Shown here: one piece after another, positions 2,683 to 10,388 of the stretch
How the letters are laid out: each line of letters begins with the position of its first letter
Numbering within the stretch: position 1 is the stretch's first letter
DNA from: Anaerolineales bacterium
Lineage (GTDB): Bacteria; Chloroflexota; Anaerolineae; Promineifilales; Promineifilaceae
Direction of reading: 5' to 3'
Length of the DNA stretch: 10,388 nucleotides
NCBI GenBank assembly: GCA_020432595.1
Contig: JAGQGA010000134.1
Location: forward strand, 1-10,388
Program-made: the position numbers and the translations under genes
The notes under the pieces: generated by a model
What the model was told of the DNA's origin: nothing
The model's input: only the letters and a program-made list of their open reading frames with translations
Database searches by the model: none

Positions 2683-3558
2683 ATGAAAGTTGTGATTTAT
2701 TCGGATGGCGGTGCTGACCCTAATCCTGGCATTGGGGGTTGGGCCGCGATTTTGCGTTTTGGTGAACATGAAAAAGTGCTGACGGGCAATAATCCGCAGA
2801 CAACCAATAACCAAATGGAGCTAACGGCGGCCATTCGGGCGCTACAATCGCTAAAACGGCCGTGTGAGGTTGCGTTTTACACCGATTCTGAGTATGTGCG
2901 GCGCGGCATTACGGAGTGGATTGAGGGATGGGCCGCGAAAGGATGGCGCAGCAAGTCGGGCAAAGCGGTGCAAAATGTGGAGCTGTGGCAGGCACTGTGG
3001 CCGTTGGTGCAGCGTCATACCATCGAGTGGCATTGGGTGAAGGGCCATGCCGGAAATGAGTTAAATGAGCGGGTGGATCGGCTGGCGCGGCAGGCACGGC
3101 TGGAGATTACCCCAGAAACGGCCGTTGGCGAGGATGTGCCCAAACTATATCTACGCGCCTCTTGTAAAGGCAACCCCGGCCCTGGCGGCTGGGGCGTGGT
3201 GCTGGAGCAGGATGGTGAGACAGAGCAGTTTAGCGGGGCGGAAAGCAGCAGCACCAATAACCGTATGGAACTGCTAGCTGCTTTAGAAGGTCTCTTGCGT
3301 TTGCCTCCGGGCAGTTCGGTGCAGTTGTTTACCAGTTCAGATTACCTTTTTCAGGGGGCTACGCGCTGGATTCACGGTTGGCGGCAGCGGAACTGGGTGA
3401 AACGGGACGGTAAGCCGGTGGTGAATGCGGATTTGTGGCAAGCACTGGACCAGCTTATGGGGCAATATGCAGTGCGCTGGATCAACGCCAAGGGGCAGGA
3501 GATTGAAGAAATGAAGGTGGCGGGCAAGCTGGCATCAGAGGCCATTGCCGTGCATTAG
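2683..3558 (+). CDS. rnhA: Tandem ribonuclease HI: active N-terminal domain, degenerate second domain
   Basis: 291-aa protein made of two RNase H folds; ordinary RNase HI is about 150 aa. Domain 1 (1-142) has the full set of metal-binding carboxylates: Asp8 in YSDGGADPNPG, Glu46 in MEL, Asp68 in YTDSEYV and Asp132 in ERVDRLA, plus the active-site loop His122 in KGHAG. It should cut the RNA strand of RNA-DNA hybrids (R-loops, Okazaki primers). Domain 2 (about 153-291) keeps the fold signatures CKGNPGPGGW, TNNRMEL and the IHGWRQRNW helix region. However, the equivalents of Asp8, Asp68 and Asp132 are Arg158, Ser218 and Gly281, and the His is Gln272; only Glu196 remains. It is therefore probably a non-catalytic hybrid-binding or structural module. 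The ATG at 2683 has no Shine-Dalgarno sequence (preceded by TAATTTTATTTT). The reading frame is intact, so this is not a frameshifted pseudogene. Its stop overlaps that of the convergent minus-strand gene. Confidence 0.93.
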   Translation: MKVVIYSDGGADPNPGIGGWAAILRFGEHEKVLTGNNPQTTNNQMELTAAIRALQSLKRPCEVAFYTDSEYVRRGITEWIEGWAAKGWRSKSGKAVQNVELWQALWPLVQRHTIEWHWVKGHAGNELNERVDRLARQARLEITPETAVGEDVPKLYLRASCKGNPGPGGWGVVLEQDGETEQFSGAESSSTNNRMELLAALEGLLRLPPGSSVQLFTSSDYLFQGATRWIHGWRQRNWVKRDGKPVVNADLWQALDQLMGQYAVRWINAKGQEIEEMKVAGKLASEAIAVH

Positions 3559-3916: not shown

Positions 3917-4003
<87 letters not shown>

Positions 4004-4074
4004 TCACTTGTAGATAACAGGTATCAAGCTCTAATGGCTAAATAGCAATAGTTAGTTGTTAAAGTTTATCAAAG

Positions 4075-4114
4075 AAGAGTCGCTCAGCTTTCCATGGCGA
4101 GATGGCTCTTTTTT
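4075..4114 (+). terminator. Intrinsic terminator after tRNA-Leu
   Basis: AAGAGTC (4075-4081) pairs with GGCTCTT (4104-4110) through one G-U pair. The stem continues with CTC (4083-4085) against GAG (4099-4101) across a small internal loop. The 3' arm runs into T4109-T4114. It ends the tRNA transcript about 70 nt after CCA. Confidence 0.65.
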
Positions 4115-4140
4115 GTTTTGAGATTTCATGTTATTCTAAG

Positions 4141-4304
4141 TGCTGCGAGTTCAGCAATGAACATTAAGAGCCATAAGCTAGGCTAAGTTACAGACATTCT
4201 TGCCTACAATCAATTCATTCACATCTCAATTTTATTGTTTGTTTTTTAGCCATCCTAATGGCTGTTACTAAACTCGCAGTCTGTAACCGCAAGGTGGCTT
4301 TTTT
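4141..4304 (+). other. AT-rich leader with competing inverted repeats (candidate structured RNA or attenuator)
   Basis: The 329-bp gap before the helicase is visibly poorer in G+C than its neighbours and contains no credible gene. Two perfect 9-bp complementary pairs cross each other: CTGCGAGTT (4143-4151) with AACTCGCAG (4271-4279), and GTTACAGAC (4187-4195) with GTCTGTAAC (4279-4287). Local hairpins compete with them: TGCTG/CAGCA (4141-4145/4152-4156), AGCCAT/ATGGCT (4248-4253/4258-4263) and GTTAC/GTAAC (4264-4268/4283-4287). Loop CGAGTT of the first hairpin is complementary to AACTCG in the loop of the last, so a kissing interaction is possible. TGGCT followed by T4299-T4304 looks like a terminator 3' arm that could pair with AGCCA at 4169-4173 or 4248-4252. 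It may be an attenuating leader of the downstream operon; this is inference. Confidence 0.35.
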
Positions 4305-4332
4305 CATTGGTTAACCATCAAAATAATTGTTC

Positions 4333-7300
4333 ATGGCCAGACTCGAAGACCTGAAAGCAGGCGTACAAGTAAATGGCATTTTGCCCCAACAAACCGTCAC
4401 CATCATAGATGTCACCTGGCACGGCTCGGCTGCCGTCGAAATTACATACAGACGCGCCGATGGCGAACCCCGCAGCCAGCTGCTTTACCGCACTGACGAA
4501 GCCAATCTCAGTATCAGCCAGACCCGCCACAAATGGGCATTTACCGCCCCTGGCGACACCTTCAAACTCACCGCTGAAGCCTTCCGCATCCATCTGGCTC
4601 ACCTCTTCGACCCTGTCCTCGCCGTCCACACCTCACTTGTCTTGCCCTTACCCCACCAGATAACGGCCGTTTACGGTGAAATGCTCTCCCGCCAACCCCT
4701 GCGCTATCTACTAGCCGACGACCCCGGTGCCGGTAAAACCATCATGGCCGGGCTGCTCATCAAAGAACTCATCGTGCGCGGCGACGTGCGCCGCTGCCTC
4801 ATCTGCGCCCCTGGCAGCCTGGCCGGACAGTGGCAGGATGAGATGTGGTTCAAATTCCAGACCCACTTCGACATCTTCACCCGCGAAACCGTTGAATCCT
4901 CCGTCAGTGGCAACCCCTTCCAGGAAAAAGATTTGGTCATCATTCGGCTGGATCAAGTTGCCCGCAGTGAAGAACTGCAAGCCAAACTCAGCCGCACCGA
5001 TTGGGACTTGGTCATCGTAGACGAAGCTCACAAAATGTCCGCCTCCTTGTGGGGTGGTGAGATGAAAGTCACCAAACGCTACCGCCTGGGCGAACTACTG
5101 GGCAGCATCAGCCGCCACTTCCTGCTCATGACCGCCACCCCCCACAACGGTAAAGAAGAAGATTTCCAGATGTTCCTGCGGCTCATAGATCCAGACCGCT
5201 TTGAGAACCGCTCCAAACTGCACAACGAGCCCGTAGATGTTTCCGACATCATGCGCCGCATGGTCAAGGAAGAGTTGCGCCGCTTCGACGGCCGTCCGCT
5301 CTTCCCCGAACGCCGCGCCTATACCGTCAACTATCAACTCTCACCCGCCGAACAAAAACTGTATGAGGATGTCACTGAATATGTCCGTACCGAGTTCAAC
5401 CGGGCGGAACAACTGCTTGATGACAAACGCAAAGGTACGGTTGGTTTTGCCCTGACTGTTTTGCAGCGCCGTCTGGCTTCTTCCCCTGAAGCTATATACC
5501 AATCGCTGCGCCGCCGCCGCGAACGCCTGGAAAAGCGGCTGCAAGAGGTAGAAGCGCAGACTTCCAGCCTGCCCTTATCAGACAACCAACTGCCGCTCTT
5601 TGACGACGATTATTGGAACGACTTCGACGATGCTCCGGCCGAAGAAACGGAGGTTATCGAAGATTTAGTCATGGACGCCGCCACCGCCGCCCTCACCGCT
5701 GCTGAACTGCAAGAAGAAATCAACATCCTGCAAACCTTAGAACGCCAGGCCTATCAACTGCGTCAAAGCGGCACGGATCGCAAATGGGCGCAGTTAGCCA
5801 CCCTTATCCAGGATGATGTGCATATGGTTGGACCGGGTGGGGCAAGGCGTAAACTGGTCATCTTCACCGAACACCGTGACACCTTGCGCTACCTGCAAGA
5901 GCGCATCATCACCCTCTTTGGCCGGGATGAACACATCGTCCACATAGACGGTGGCCTCAAGCGAGAAGACCGCCGCGTGGTGGAAGACAAGTTTCGTAAT
6001 GACCCCGATGTCCATTTTCTGCTGGCCACCGATGCGGCTGGCGAAGGCATTAACCTGCAACGCGCCCACCTGATGATTAACTATGACCTGCCCTGGAATC
6101 CCAACCGACTGGAGCAGCGCTTCGGCCGTATCCATCGCATTGGTCAGACCGAGGTGTGCCATCTGTGGAATCTGGTGGCTGCCGAAACCCGTGAAGGCTA
6201 TGTCTACGAGCGGCTGCTGCGGAAATTGGAAACGGAACAGCAAGCCCTTGACGGCCGTGTCTTCGACATCCTCGGTCAGCTATTTGAGCAAACCCCTTTG
6301 CGCAAATTGCTGATGGATGCTGTGCGCTATGGTGACAGACCCGATATTCGTGCCAAACTGAACCAGGCGGTAGATAATGCCGTTGACCGCGACCATGTGC
6401 GCGAACTGGTTGAATCCCGCTCCTTAGCTGCCAACTCTCTCGACTTGAGCGAGATTGAGCGTATCCGGGCAGACATGGAACGGTATGCTGCCCGTCGTTT
6501 ACAACCCTTCTACATTCAAGGCTTTTTCCTGCAAGCTTTTCAAGAATTGGGTGGCGCCATCCGTGAACGAGAGCCTGGCCGCTTCCGCATCACCCATGTA
6601 CCTGCTGCCATCCGTGACCGTGCCAAAGCCAATGGCTCGGTCATGCCTGTACTGCGCCAATATGAGCGTGTTTGCTTCGATAAAGAGCTGATCGCGCCCG
6701 AAGGCAAGCCGCTGGCGCAATTCCTTTGCCCTGGCCATCCTTTATTGGATACCGTTATTGATCTTATTCTGGACAAACAGCGGCAAACGCTGCGTAATGG
6801 CACGATTCTGGTAGACAGTCGAGACCCCGGCCAGACACCCCGTTATCTCTTTTTCCTGGAACAAACCATTCGGGATGCCAACCAACGCACCATTTCCCAA
6901 GAAGTTCATTTTGTCGAAATTGAGGCCGACGGCCGTCTTCATGCCGGTGGTTACGCGCCTTATTTAGATTATGACCCTGCCACCCCTGAACAATTAGACC
7001 TTATTCGGAGTACCGACATCCTGTCGGCCTCTGTTCCCGAAACTCTGGAGGGCCAGGTCACCAGCCACGCCATCACCCAACTTATTCCCCGCCACCTGGA
7101 ACAAGTCCGCCGCCGCCGGGAGGAACTCATAGACAAAACCCTCCATGCTGTCCAGGAACGGCTGACGCGGGAGATTAACTATTGGGACAGACGCGCCGCT
7201 GAACTGCGCCGCCAGGAACGCGAAGGCAAGCCCAATGCCCGCCTCAATTCAGCTTTGGCGCAGGAGCGAGCTGATAATTTGGCCGCTCGCCTGGAACGGC

Positions 7301-7800
7301 GCAAGGACGAGTTGGCCTTGGAACGGCAAATCTCAGCCGCGCCACCTGTGCTGATTGGCGGAGCTATGATTGTGCCCATTGGCCTGCTGTTGGGCGAGCG
7401 GACACCAGCCGACATCATGGACACGCGCATCACCGAAGCCATAGCCATGAAGGCAGTGATGGAGGCAGAGATTACACTGGGCAACCACCCCAAAGATGTG
7501 GGCCAGCAAAAGCTGGGCTATGATATTGAGAGCTTTGACCCGGAAACCGGCCGTTTACGCTTCATCGAAGTTAAAGGCCGACGTGCCGGTTCTCCAACCG
7601 TCACCATCACCCGCAACGAAATCCTCGTTGCGCTAAACCAGCCCAACCAGTTCATCCTGGCCCTGGTAGAGATAGAAAATGGGCAAGCCAAACCGCCCCG
7701 CTACGTGCGCCAACCCTTCCACAAAGAACCGGACTTTGGGGTCACCAGCGTCAACTATCATTTGTCGGAATTGATTAAACAGAGTGTAGTACCTGCCTAA
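4333..7800 (+). CDS. SNF2/DEAH-type helicase with C-terminal DUF3883-like domain (defence-associated, DrmD-like)
   Basis: 1155-aa superfamily 2 translocase from the ATG at 4333 (a TTG two codons earlier is in frame; neither has a clear Shine-Dalgarno). The SNF2 motifs are in order: LPLPHQ Q-motif-like (104-109), Walker A GAGKT (132-136), DEAH (230-233), TATPHNG (267-273), KLVIFTEH (507-514), ATDAAGEGINLQ (565-576) and the arginine-finger motif QRFGRIHRIGQ (595-605). Between the two RecA lobes lies a basic coiled-coil segment and then an acidic linker containing QLPLF (419-423). The 900-1010 region is again coiled-coil-like and Arg/Glu-rich. The C-terminus (about 1055-1135) matches the DUF3883 pattern, with Asp1064, Glu1079 and Lys1081 (FIEVKG) resembling a PD-(D/E)xK core. 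Such helicases accompany DNA methylases in anti-phage loci, class 1 DISARM (drmD) or helicase-methylase-ATPase systems. It is followed 16 bp later by the C39-like gene, probably in one operon. Confidence 0.88.
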   Translation: MARLEDLKAGVQVNGILPQQTVTIIDVTWHGSAAVEITYRRADGEPRSQLLYRTDEANLSISQTRHKWAFTAPGDTFKLTAEAFRIHLAHLFDPVLAVHTSLVLPLPHQITAVYGEMLSRQPLRYLLADDPGAGKTIMAGLLIKELIVRGDVRRCLICAPGSLAGQWQDEMWFKFQTHFDIFTRETVESSVSGNPFQEKDLVIIRLDQVARSEELQAKLSRTDWDLVIVDEAHKMSASLWGGEMKVTKRYRLGELLGSISRHFLLMTATPHNGKEEDFQMFLRLIDPDRFENRSKLHNEPVDVSDIMRRMVKEELRRFDGRPLFPERRAYTVNYQLSPAEQKLYEDVTEYVRTEFNRAEQLLDDKRKGTVGFALTVLQRRLASSPEAIYQSLRRRRERLEKRLQEVEAQTSSLPLSDNQLPLFDDDYWNDFDDAPAEETEVIEDLVMDAATAALTAAELQEEINILQTLERQAYQLRQSGTDRKWAQLATLIQDDVHMVGPGGARRKLVIFTEHRDTLRYLQERIITLFGRDEHIVHIDGGLKREDRRVVEDKFRNDPDVHFLLATDAAGEGINLQRAHLMINYDLPWNPNRLEQRFGRIHRIGQTEVCHLWNLVAAETREGYVYERLLRKLETEQQALDGRVFDILGQLFEQTPLRKLLMDAVRYGDRPDIRAKLNQAVDNAVDRDHVRELVESRSLAANSLDLSEIERIRADMERYAARRLQPFYIQGFFLQAFQELGGAIREREPGRFRITHVPAAIRDRAKANGSVMPVLRQYERVCFDKELIAPEGKPLAQFLCPGHPLLDTVIDLILDKQRQTLRNGTILVDSRDPGQTPRYLFFLEQTIRDANQRTISQEVHFVEIEADGRLHAGGYAPYLDYDPATPEQLDLIRSTDILSASVPETLEGQVTSHAITQLIPRHLEQVRRRREELIDKTLHAVQERLTREINYWDRRAAELRRQEREGKPNARLNSALAQERADNLAARLERRKDELALERQISAAPPVLIGGAMIVPIGLLLGERTPADIMDTRITEAIAMKAVMEAEITLGNHPKDVGQQKLGYDIESFDPETGRLRFIEVKGRRAGSPTVTITRNEILVALNQPNQFILALVEIENGQAKPPRYVRQPFHKEPDFGVTSVNYHLSELIKQSVVPA

Positions 7801-7816
7801 AAAGGGAGAGAAAACC

Positions 7817-9295
7817 ATGTTAAAAAGATCGTGTGTTAGAACTCGAATTTTTGTACTAGGAATGCTTTTCTCACTGCTTATCAGTTATTTATTCTGGGAG
7901 ACTACGCATCAACACGTCTATGCTGATGAACAGGCCGCAATTCTCAATAGCAGCGAAACACTAATTGCCCATTTTGCTAAGGGGCCGTATGCTGTTACAA
8001 CGATGCGGGAGTATCAGGGGCCAGTTACTGTTACAATAACTGGCATTGGGCAAGCCTCAGCCACACAATATAGCGATGCCTTTTACATTCTCACCGATAA
8101 TTTTGGTAATCCTATTAACCCTGTCCATCCAACGCTCCTTTATAATTGGGTTTTGTGGATAAATGGACAACATGCTGAGAATTTTATCCCTGGTCAACAA
8201 GTACCCTCCTATCGTAGTAACAATAGTTATACCTTCCAGATAAATGCGCCTGGCGGCCCGCTTGTATTTGGCGTCGGTGATGTAGGCACCGGTGATAACA
8301 CGGGAAGTTTTACCATTACTGTTGGTAATGATGGCAGCTGCGAGGTGCCGTTCTTTTCCCAAATAGATCCGCAGTGGCGGAAGCATCCGCTACGCACGGA
8401 TGGTAGCTGTGATATGTCATGTAATACCATTGGGGCTTGTGGTTGTACACTAACAGCGGCTGCCATGAATTTTGCCTACTTGGGAGCAGATCTCAATCCA
8501 GCTACATTAAGTGATTGTATGGGAGCAAATGCTTGTATGTTTCGGTATGGTGCAGGTGCCTCCTGTACCAATGGTAAAGCAAGCTATGCAGGATCTCGTC
8601 AATTTACCAATTGGCTTGATTTGGATCGGGAGTTGAACCAAAACGGCCGTTTAGTTATCTTGGGGTTCCACAAAGCAGGCAACGCATCCCAAACGCATTG
8701 GGTCTTGGTGACCGCTGGTCAGGGCAGCGACCCCAGCAACTACTTGGCACACGATCCTGGCTCCTTGCAAGGTGCCAATACAAATTTGCAATCCTTTTTG
8801 CGCGATAACTGGGTGCCAAAAAGAATTCTGCTATACGATGGGCAGCCAGCCTGTAACCCAGGCACACAATTAGCCTCATCACTATCAACACAAATCAATA
8901 ACCCCTTCCAATCGACCGAGGCAACCTTTGCACCAAATATTAATACAATGTCAGAAGAACCTGCCGCGATTACTGGCAGTATCACGCGCTACCATTTGAA
9001 TGAGACAACAATAATAGTACAGTTGGCAGCGTCAAGTACATCTAGCAACATCACCGATATGTTGATTTGGTCAGATTCTAGCCCGACTCCAAATTGGCAA
9101 CCGTTTAAGAGTCATGCGTGGTTACCTTGGAATCCCGGCGACCAACTCCACGCTCGTTTTCGTGATGAACTTGGCAACATTTCCGATACCTACACGGAAA
9201 GTTTATACCCTCTGACAAGCCCACCCACGTCACCAATAATGCGAGCCTATCTTCCTCTGATTATTCGGAATGTTGAAGCCAATATTGCACCATAA
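7817..9295 (+). CDS. Exported C39-like (papain-fold) protein with lectin-like N-terminal domain and YLPLIIRN tail
   Basis: 492-aa exported protein. The N-terminus has basic residues, a hydrophobic stretch (IFVLGMLFSLLISYLF, 11-26) and a plausible cleavage after VYADEQ; a retained membrane anchor is also possible. Residues about 65-170 look like a beta-sandwich ending GDVGTGDNTGSFTITV, similar in style to PA-IL-like lectin domains. Residues about 176-340 fit a C39_2-type papain-like fold: VPFFSQIDPQW, then ACGCTLTAAAM with Cys210 as likely nucleophile, His294 in THWVLV and Asp313 in AHDPGS. Extra cysteines (197-250) suggest disulfides. The C-terminus has a small beta domain and ends RAYLPLIIRN plus nine residues, a tail common on Chloroflexota secreted proteins. 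AAAGGGAG (7801-7808) is a good ribosome binding site 16 bp after the helicase stop. Its G+C is clearly lower than that of the helicase. Substrate and link to defence are unknown. Confidence 0.78.
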   Translation: MLKRSCVRTRIFVLGMLFSLLISYLFWETTHQHVYADEQAAILNSSETLIAHFAKGPYAVTTMREYQGPVTVTITGIGQASATQYSDAFYILTDNFGNPINPVHPTLLYNWVLWINGQHAENFIPGQQVPSYRSNNSYTFQINAPGGPLVFGVGDVGTGDNTGSFTITVGNDGSCEVPFFSQIDPQWRKHPLRTDGSCDMSCNTIGACGCTLTAAAMNFAYLGADLNPATLSDCMGANACMFRYGAGASCTNGKASYAGSRQFTNWLDLDRELNQNGRLVILGFHKAGNASQTHWVLVTAGQGSDPSNYLAHDPGSLQGANTNLQSFLRDNWVPKRILLYDGQPACNPGTQLASSLSTQINNPFQSTEATFAPNINTMSEEPAAITGSITRYHLNETTIIVQLAASSTSSNITDMLIWSDSSPTPNWQPFKSHAWLPWNPGDQLHARFRDELGNISDTYTESLYPLTSPPTSPIMRAYLPLIIRNVEANIAP

Positions 9296-9349
9296 ACGAA
9301 TCACTAACAAAAATCTTGGTTACTATTAGCAGAGAGAAAAAGAATATAC

Positions 9350-10388
9350 ATGACCCAACGTAAAAAATTAATCGAAGTCGCTTTACCGTTAGAAGCAATT
9401 AACGAAGCCAGCGCCCGTGAAAAATCTATTCGGCATGGGCATCCCAGTACGCTGCATCTGTGGTGGGCGCGGCGACCTCTAGCCGCTGCCCGCGCTGTCA
9501 TTTTTACCTCGTTGGTGGATGACCCGGATGATCCCCAAGCACCACCTGCCTTTGTCCAAGCCTGCCGCAACTTGCCCAAGGGCAAAAATGCCACCGCCAA
9601 CGACACCCCACGCCAGCGGCTGTTTGATTTTATTGAGCGGCTGGTGACGTGGGAAGCGACGACGGATGAGGCCATTCTGACGACGGCGCGGGAATTGATT
9701 CAGCTGAGTACGGATGGCAACCCACCGCCGCTGCTCGACCCCTTTGCCGGGGGTGGCTCCATTCCGTTGGAGGCGCAGCGGTTGGGGCTGGAAGCCCACG
9801 CCAGTGACCTGAACCCGGTGGCGGTGATGATTAACAAAGCGTTGATTGAGATACCGCCGAAGTTTGCCAACCAGCCGCCGGTGAACCCGCGTGACCGAGG
9901 AGGAGCGCCCGCTGCCAGCGGGCAAACGGCCGCCAAGATGGCGGCGGTACAGTGGAAGGGAGCCAGTGGCCTAGCCGCCGATGTCCGTTACTATGGCGAA
10001 TGGATGCGGGAGAAAGCGTGGGAGCGGATAGGCCACCTGTACCCGGAGTGCAATGGAGAGACAGTGATTGCCTGGCTGTGGGCGCGGACGGTGAAATGCC
10101 CCAACCCAGCCTGTGGGGCGCAAATGCCGCTGGTACGCTCGTTTGATTTGAGCAAAAAGAAAGGCAAACATGCCTGGGTAGAGCCACAGGTTGATGCCAA
10201 AACACGCAAAATCACTTTTGTAGTGAAACAGGCCAGCAAAGGCAGTGGGGCAGATGGCACAGTAAATCGTTTGGGTGCAACGTGTGTCGCATGTGGCACA
10301 CCTGCACCATTTCCTTATGTTCGGGATGAAGGGAAGTCTGGCAGGATGAACGCTCAACTCATGGCGATTGTGACAGAAGGAAACAACG
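9350..10388 (+). CDS. DUF1156-type DNA adenine methyltransferase with zinc ribbon (3'-truncated)
   Basis: The first 346 residues of a large methyltransferase open to the window edge. The N-terminus KKLIEVALPLEAINEAS followed by HPSTLHLWWARRPLAA is the hallmark of DUF1156 (COG1743, adenine-specific DNA methylase with a Zn ribbon). The AdoMet motif I is DPFAGGGSIPLEA (130-142), with the acidic residue Asp153 after the next strand. Cys250/Cys255 and Cys312/Cys315 are a split zinc ribbon. The catalytic (D/N)PPY motif normally comes later and lies beyond the window, so activity cannot be judged. Residues about 184-200 (GGAPAASGQT...) look like an insert encoded by two palindromes. It follows the C39-like gene by 54 bp with only a weak AGAGAG 13 nt before the ATG and no terminator, so it probably belongs to the same operon. 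Likely role: self-DNA marking, or an effector, in an anti-phage system together with the helicase. Confidence 0.88.
   Translation, partial: MTQRKKLIEVALPLEAINEASAREKSIRHGHPSTLHLWWARRPLAAARAVIFTSLVDDPDDPQAPPAFVQACRNLPKGKNATANDTPRQRLFDFIERLVTWEATTDEAILTTARELIQLSTDGNPPPLLDPFAGGGSIPLEAQRLGLEAHASDLNPVAVMINKALIEIPPKFANQPPVNPRDRGGAPAASGQTAAKMAAVQWKGASGLAADVRYYGEWMREKAWERIGHLYPECNGETVIAWLWARTVKCPNPACGAQMPLVRSFDLSKKKGKHAWVEPQVDAKTRKITFVVKQASKGSGADGTVNRLGATCVACGTPAPFPYVRDEGKSGRMNAQLMAIVTEGNN
9907..9945. repeat. Double palindrome inside the methyltransferase gene
   Basis: Two perfect hairpins lie 5 nt apart: GCCCGCT-GCC-AGCGGGC (9907-9923) and GCCGCCA-AGA-TGGCGGC (9929-9945). Each has a 7-bp stem and a 3-nt loop. 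They encode a low-complexity Ala/Gly-rich stretch in frame. They look like a small palindromic element inserted in the coding sequence. Confidence 0.6.

What the first reader, a model, noticed from the sequence alone, without database searches (positions are those of the whole stretch)
4333..10388. Helicase, exported C39-like protein and DUF1156 methylase in one apparent operon
A SNF2-type helicase with a DUF3883-like end and a DUF1156 methylase are a recurrent pair in anti-phage loci (class 1 DISARM-like, or helicase-methylase-ATPase sets with a DUF499 ATPase). Here an exported papain-fold protein sits between them, 16 bp and 54 bp from its neighbours, on the same strand with no terminator. 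This may be a variant defence system with an extracytoplasmic component, or a cargo insertion. The window ends before the remaining genes, so the system type is open.
Basis: partly seen in the sequence, partly recalled or inferred. Interest (0 to 1): 0.75.

Follow-up and report, generated by a model that had tools for sequence, protein, structure and literature searches.

The report
Defence operon carrying a secreted-peptidase gene
A known type of bacterial anti-phage gene set (Hma) has an unrelated gene for a probably secreted peptidase lodged between its first two genes, most likely a passenger in a slot where such gene sets often carry extra genes.

Summary
A SNF2 helicase, an exported C39-like protein and a DUF1156 methylase lie in line, 16 and 54 bp apart, with no terminator-like site between them. 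The helicase and methylase are HmaA (1621 bits, full length) and HmaB (402 bits, cut by the window end). This is Hma, also called Type-1 BREX-related, not DISARM. The closest relative (88% HmaA) also has the third gene, a DUF499 ATPase. Relatives show that the hmaA|hmaB junction is a cargo slot: 42 of 91 distinct loci have more than 150 bp there, and the four closest (67-88%) each carry a different gene (HNH-like, DUF6883, PIN, GmrSD). None of 120 hmaA loci held has the C39 gene. Its GC3 (0.42 against 0.61-0.63) suggests it was acquired. Its product is modelled as an N-terminal hydrophobic helix, a PA-IL-like lectin fold, a C39-type papain domain with invariant Q182/C210/H294/D313, an FN3 domain and a "YLPLI" tail. 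One other locus (L031) has exported cargo in the slot. The set follows a tRNA-Leu where four relatives have another gene. Verdict: a known defence system with an unusual passenger; a functional extracytoplasmic part is possible but unsupported.

The parts
3917..4003 (+). tRNA-Leu (anticodon CAG), the last gene of the conserved host neighbourhood
   Evidence: ARAGORN; Rfam 51.4 bits; same gene at the same place in 4 of 5 relatives fetched
4004..4332 (+). region between tRNA-Leu and hmaA: terminator-like hairpin, then a stretch without recognised counterpart in relatives; likely left boundary of the inserted set near 4120-4130 (inferred, weak)
   Evidence: folding
4333..7800 (+). hmaA: SNF2-family helicase with NOV_C C-terminal domain (GYDIES...FIEVKGR, PD-(D/E)XK-like motif, the motif reading recalled)
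   Evidence: PADLOC HmaA 1621.5 bits over residues 3-1155; Pfam; motifs
7817..9295 (+). cargo gene: exported lectin-fold / C39-like papain-fold / FN3 protein, 492 aa
   Evidence: composition
9350..10388 (+). hmaB, N-terminal 346 residues: DUF1156 N6-adenine methylase, cut by the window end
   Evidence: PADLOC HmaB 402.5 bits; Pfam DUF1156; DPFAGGG motif

Best explanation
The core is an Hma (Type-1 BREX-related) RM-like defence set: HmaB methylates self DNA, the HmaC/DUF499 ATPase (beyond the window) assembles and senses, and the HmaA helicase-nuclease attacks unmodified DNA (mechanism as proposed in PMC12839542, not shown here). The set was inserted just downstream of a host tRNA-Leu. The hmaA|hmaB junction is a slot that repeatedly takes up extra genes. 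In this lineage it took up a gene from a Chloroflexota-type exported family whose product is a lectin-fold, C39-like peptidase and FN3 protein. The gene is probably transcribed by read-through from hmaA and translated from its own AAAGGGAGAG ribosome site (inferred). The protein would leave the cell through Sec, bind a glycan through its lectin-fold domain and cut peptide bonds with its Cys210-His294-Asp313 site outside the membrane (inferred from fold and conserved residues). It is a passenger with its own, probably non-defence, function, not a working part of Hma.
For: Hma profiles: HmaA 1621.5 bits full length, HmaB 402.5 bits on the fragment. Closest relative L002 (88% HmaA): hmaA - 254-aa HNH-like ORF - hmaB, then a NACHT/EAD7 protein and a DUF499 match (G002:C30:19348-21261). 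Slot: 42 of 91 distinct collinear loci have >150 bp between hmaA and hmaB; 4 of 4 relatives at 67-88% HmaA carry four different cargoes. Cargo named by Pfam (nine slot ORFs scanned, eight with a match): DarT, RloB, Abi_2, Fic, PIN, GmrSD, DUF6883, CAP. C39 gene absent: 0 of 120 loci with an hmaA match; no C39 relative in the genomes of three of the four closest (G001, G002, G003 at E<=0.001), and none at E<=1e-30 in the fourth (G019). Composition: C39 GC3 0.416 against hmaA 0.627 and hmaB 0.610; L002's two cargo genes show the same drop, 0.357 and 0.348 against 0.58-0.69. Homologues: 26 of the 97 other proteins found cover at least 82% of it at 42-56% identity. tRNA site.
Against: The gene is in the same direction and tightly packed (16 bp), with no sign of its own promoter, as expected of a true operon member. 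Its catalytic residues are intact, so it is not a decaying insert. Not all cargo differs in composition: in L001 and L139 the drop against hmaB is slight (0.558 against 0.647; 0.669 against 0.677). Exported Chloroflexota genes may also simply be poorer in GC: two exported genes near the L002 set have GC3 0.495 and 0.517.
Confidence: 0.8

Rival explanations
1. The exported protein is a functional outer layer of this Hma variant: it is co-expressed with the helicase, sits on the cell surface through its lectin-fold domain and cleaves phage receptors or phage adhesins, so that the operon blocks adsorption outside and restricts DNA inside.
For: Same strand, 16 bp spacing, no terminator-like site; intact catalytic residues; lectin and papain folds suited to surface glycoproteins. 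Auxiliary nucleases inside this kind of locus are read as functional in print (PMC12839542 sections 29 and 35). One other locus, L031, has an exported CAP-domain protein in the same junction, and two have proteins with several predicted membrane segments there (L041 195 aa, L139 226 aa).
Against: No C39 match in 120 loci with hmaA. Partial homologues sit in eight fetched stretches where I recognised no defence set by eye; of ten neighbours from five of these scanned with PADLOC, one is HsdR-like, about 4 kb from the L160 homologue, and one, in L140, matches a candidate-defence ATPase model (PDC-S27, 138.5 bits).
Confidence: 0.1
2. The three genes are not one unit: the C39 gene is an independent recent insertion that separates hmaA from hmaB and has weakened or broken the defence set by polarity.
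For: 54 bp with only a weak ribosome site before hmaB; a promoter-like site at 9212-9240 on the + strand inside the end of the C39 gene could serve hmaB alone.
Against: hmaA and the visible part of hmaB are open and match their profiles strongly; many relatives have 0.4-7 kb of cargo in the same place beside an hmaA matched over most of its length.
Confidence: 0.07
3. Assembly artefact: a fragment from another Chloroflexota genome was joined into the Hma operon.
For: The window belongs to no held genome and composition changes abruptly at the gene.
Against: Both joins fall between complete ORFs with no damage; the protein cluster of this gene stands for 12 contigs, the longest 15,855 bases, though whether these show the same joins was not seen; a similar composition drop is seen for cargo in L002.
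Confidence: 0.03

Closest known systems
Hma system (PADLOC; Payne et al. 2021, PMC8565338)
   Same: HmaA and HmaB by profile, in the same order and strand; DUF499 ATPase downstream in the closest relative
   Different: Extra exported gene between hmaA and hmaB; hmaC lies outside the window
Type-1 BREX-related (BR) system (Rakesh and Krishnan 2026, PMC12839542)
   Same: SNF2 helicase with a C-terminal nuclease-like domain, DUF1156 N6-methylase, DUF499 ATPase; auxiliary genes within the locus are described there
   Different: The auxiliary genes described in the parts read are nucleases; the words secreted, extracellular, signal peptide and papain do not occur in its main text
C39-type papain-fold peptidases (PCAT1 and ComA peptidase domains; 3erv C39-like peptidase)
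   Different: Stand-alone exported enzyme with lectin-fold and FN3 modules instead of part of an ABC transporter; window protein scores under the Pfam cut-off
PA-IL/PllA-type lectins
   Different: Fused to a peptidase; Pfam PA-IL reached only 1 of 32 family members, at E 0.011; sugar binding untested
Contact-dependent inhibition toxin domain of Citrobacter rodentium (8ssm)
   Different: No sequence relation found; no immunity gene recognised beside the C39 gene

Membership tests
Hma / Type-1 BR | HmaA-type SNF2 helicase | tested here: met
   PDLC00659 1621.5 bits, residues 3-1155 of 1157
Hma / Type-1 BR | HmaB DUF1156 N6-methylase downstream of the helicase | tested here: met
   PDLC00661 402.5 bits on the first 346 residues; Pfam DUF1156 1.3e-25; the rest lies beyond the window
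Hma / Type-1 BR | HmaC DUF499 ATPase in the locus | not testable with these tools
   Window ends inside hmaB and no genome is held. In relatives: DUF499 on the same contig in G002 and G019; 32 of 33 genomes searched have a match somewhere
Hma / Type-1 BR | active PD-(D/E)XK domain at the helicase C-terminus (Type-1 mark) | tested here: inconclusive
   NOV_C domain and GYDIES...FIEVKGR motif present; that this is the active nuclease motif is recalled, not computed
Hma / Type-1 BR | no DUF3780 gene and no HKD-helicase fusion (Type-2 marks) | tested here: inconclusive
   No HKD/PLD domain reported on the helicase; DUF3780 could lie beyond the window
DISARM class 1 | DrmD helicase at the curated cut-off | tested here: not met
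   NF038317 374.4 bits against cut-off 610; NF038318 191.6 against 950
DISARM class 1 | drmA/drmB/drmC beside it | not testable with these tools
   Not in the window; the remaining genes lie beyond it
Peptidase_C39_2 (PF13529) | Pfam gathering score | tested here: not met
   20.5 bits against 24 for the window protein; all 32 aligned members match at E<=1, best 1.8e-8
C39-type papain-fold peptidase | fold | tested here: met
C39-type papain-fold peptidase | Gln, Cys, His, Asp active site | tested here: met
   Q182, C210, H294, D313 in invariant columns of the 32-sequence alignment; their assignment to the active site is recalled and activity was not assayed
PA-IL lectin | sequence profile PF07828 | tested here: inconclusive
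   1 of 32 members, E 0.011; not the window protein; fold agrees

The most novel reading that the evidence does not exclude
An intracellular RM-like defence operon has taken in an extracytoplasmic arm: a surface lectin-peptidase co-expressed with the helicase that removes phage receptors or trims adhesins, giving two-layer protection from one transcript. The exported CAP-domain protein in the same junction of L031 would then be a second, independent case.
Probability: 0.1. Interest if true: 0.7.

Novelty: new member of a known kind. Interest (0 to 1): 0.3.

Why it matters
It places an unassigned locus in a known defence system and shows that the first two genes of that system are separated by a slot that is often filled with different genes, many of them toxin- or nuclease-like. 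An exported enzyme there was seen only once more among the loci examined. If it were functional it would extend such systems beyond the membrane; if, as seems likely, it is a passenger, it warns against reading co-orientation in defence operons as function.

Tried and rejected
DISARM: rejected on curated DrmD cut-offs. The C39 gene as a phage or plasmid gene: no match in viral contigs (close relatives only), plasmids or phages. The C39 gene as a normal gene of the host order: 2 of 56 genomes have a match at E<=1e-60, both to the C39/FN3 part only; 4 of 396 in the class at E<=1e-60; 11 of 400 in the phylum at E<=1e-30. These samples overlap, and at most three candidates per genome were scored. 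None of the listed matches covers the whole protein. Site-specific integration in the tRNA: no repeat of the tRNA end within the window; the break seems to lie about 120 bp past it. Sequence search of the lectin-fold domain against solved structures gave only a chance match and the whole-family profile none, so the lectin call rests on fold. Foldseek gave no PDB match at E<=0.001 and four viral ones (Ig-like, tail and tail-fibre proteins by name, one unnamed); a cyanophage endolysin and a lysozyme are lower in that list at low coverage.

Exported cargo being selected against: a first comparison suggested it (1 of 53 cargo ORFs against 18 of 108 ORFs in thirteen other stretches, Fisher p 0.004), but seven of those thirteen stretches had been fetched because they hold exported C39 homologues and the length cut-offs differed. 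Against ORFs upstream of hmaA in the same loci it vanishes: 1 of 48 against 21 of 273, p 0.22. Rejected.

Junction counts: one search counted 46 of 96 with duplicates; one search gave 36 of 85 after removing duplicates, but for six loci a shorter copy without hmaB stood in; one search repaired this: 107 distinct hmaA loci, 91 with hmaB downstream on the same strand, 42 of these with more than 150 bp. Ten hmaA loci had been extended on purpose, six of them having shown no hmaB in their shorter copy, which raises the share. The signal-peptide score is my own uncalibrated hydrophobicity measure and ORF lists are mechanical.

Full report
Check of the observation. The window (10,388 bp) holds, in order: an ORF without Pfam match (it looks like a glycoside hydrolase to me; recalled), a pyridine-nucleotide flavoprotein reductase, a protein with two RNase H stretches, tRNA-Leu(CAG), and then three + strand ORFs: 4327/4333-7800, 7817-9295 and 9350 to the end. 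Spacings are 16 and 54 bp. No + strand terminator-like site lies between 6670 and 10388 and no + strand promoter-like site between 6379 and 9211.

What the core is. The helicase matches PADLOC HmaA over nearly its whole length at 1621.5 bits, against 434 bits for the best DrmD model; the methylase fragment matches HmaB at 402.5 bits. DrmD cut-offs of NCBIfam are not reached. Hma was named in PMC8565338 (passages seen) and recast as a DUF499-centred Type-1 BREX-related system in PMC12839542 (passages, abstract and section list, section 29 and part 1 of 2 of section 35 seen). Helicase motifs (DDPGAGKT, DEAHK, QRFGRIHRIGQ) and a C-terminal GYDIES...FIEVKGR are present. The third gene, hmaC, lies beyond the window, for which no genome is held. 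In the closest relative, L002 (88% HmaA, an Anaerolineae MAG), the order is hmaA - 254-aa ORF - hmaB - NACHT/EAD7 protein - DUF499. The 254-aa ORF has no Pfam or PADLOC match; HNH-like is my reading of its cysteines and histidines. L139 (69%) has hmaA - GmrSD-like - a 226-aa ORF - hmaB, with a DUF499 match at its contig end.

The junction is a slot. Of 107 distinct HmaA loci held, 91 have hmaB downstream on the same strand; 42 of the 91 have more than 150 bp between them. In the earlier count of 85, 15 of 28 Chloroflexota and 21 of 57 other loci did (groups assigned by me from record titles and the phylum draw). Cargo seen includes DarT, RloB, Abi_2, Fic, PIN, GmrSD, DUF6883 and an exported CAP protein. 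The four relatives with HmaA identity of 67-88% (L002, L001, L139, L003) all have cargo, each a different one. The next junction, hmaB|hmaC, is longer than 1 kb in 17 of 46 loci (contents not examined except in L002). That auxiliary nucleases sit inside these loci is already in print (PMC12839542).

The C39 gene is not shared. Of 167 loci held, 120 have an hmaA match and 30 a C39 match; none has both (many stretches reach only 1.5 kb past hmaA). The genomes of L001, L002 and L003 have no relative of it at E<=0.001, and that of L139 none at E<=1e-30. Its GC3 is 0.416 against 0.627 and 0.610 for its neighbours. The two cargo genes of L002 show the same drop (0.357, 0.348), those of L001 and L139 little against their hmaB. 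Exported cargo: by a hydrophobicity score, 1 of 48 cargo ORFs of 150 aa or more (L031), against 21 of 273 ORFs upstream of hmaA in the same loci (p 0.22); two further cargo ORFs have several predicted membrane segments. So an exported gene in the slot is uncommon but not shown to be rarer than expected; an earlier comparison that said so was biased (see Tried and rejected).

Place in the host. Reductase and RNase H genes are collinear in 5 of 5 relatives fetched, and tRNA-Leu(CAG) follows in 4 of the 5. In these four the next gene encodes a similar, N-terminally hydrophobic protein (in L165 only its start is on the contig; the one copy scanned, from L163, has no Pfam match), behind a TTGAGA...TATAAT promoter-like sequence. 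In the window hmaA stands there instead, and similarity to this promoter region stops near 4123 (weak, a few bases). So the Hma set is probably an island inserted next to tRNA-Leu.

How it most likely works. Shown here: gene order, family membership of the two core genes, slot behaviour, absence in relatives, predicted fold and conserved residues. Taken from the literature: Hma as an RM-like defence. Inferred: read-through expression, secretion, lectin-guided peptidase action. The passenger reading explains the absence in relatives, the composition and the many other cargoes; the functional reading has adjacency, orientation and an intact active site.

In print. Searches (listings seen) and the term look-up in PMC12839542 showed no exported peptidase in Hma or BR loci; most subscription papers are not held and supplements were not read.

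Noticed in passing
window 4128-4326: Upstream of hmaA two perfect 9-bp inverted repeats interleave (4143-4151/4271-4279 and 4187-4195/4279-4287), the topology of an H-type pseudoknot; 45 of 2000 shuffles have as many pairs, folding z-score -3.04. The 3' arm was not found in 167 loci. Possible leader RNA or operator of the defence set.
   Followed up: partly
window 9230-9292; L162:11438-13213; L140, L141, L159, L161: Exported Chloroflexota proteins repeatedly end in [YF]-L-P followed by hydrophobic residues and often R or K, perhaps a sorting or anchoring tail; the ten papers listed by one search gave nothing on it by title and abstract start.
   Followed up: no
L031:4069-7932: A 1287-aa exported CAP-domain protein sits between hmaA and hmaB in an Oscillospiraceae contig, the only other exported cargo found.
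   Followed up: partly
P0091, P0096: Proteins named Ser/Thr kinase match about a quarter of the C39 protein, probably its lectin-fold module, suggesting use as a receptor sensor.
   Followed up: no
L002:1919-4993: A TmtA-like protein (797 bits) lies upstream of the Hma set of the closest relative, so that set may sit in a defence island.
   Followed up: no
window 2683-3558: RNase H protein with two RNase_H stretches, conserved next to the reductase gene in 5 of 5 relatives fetched.
   Followed up: no
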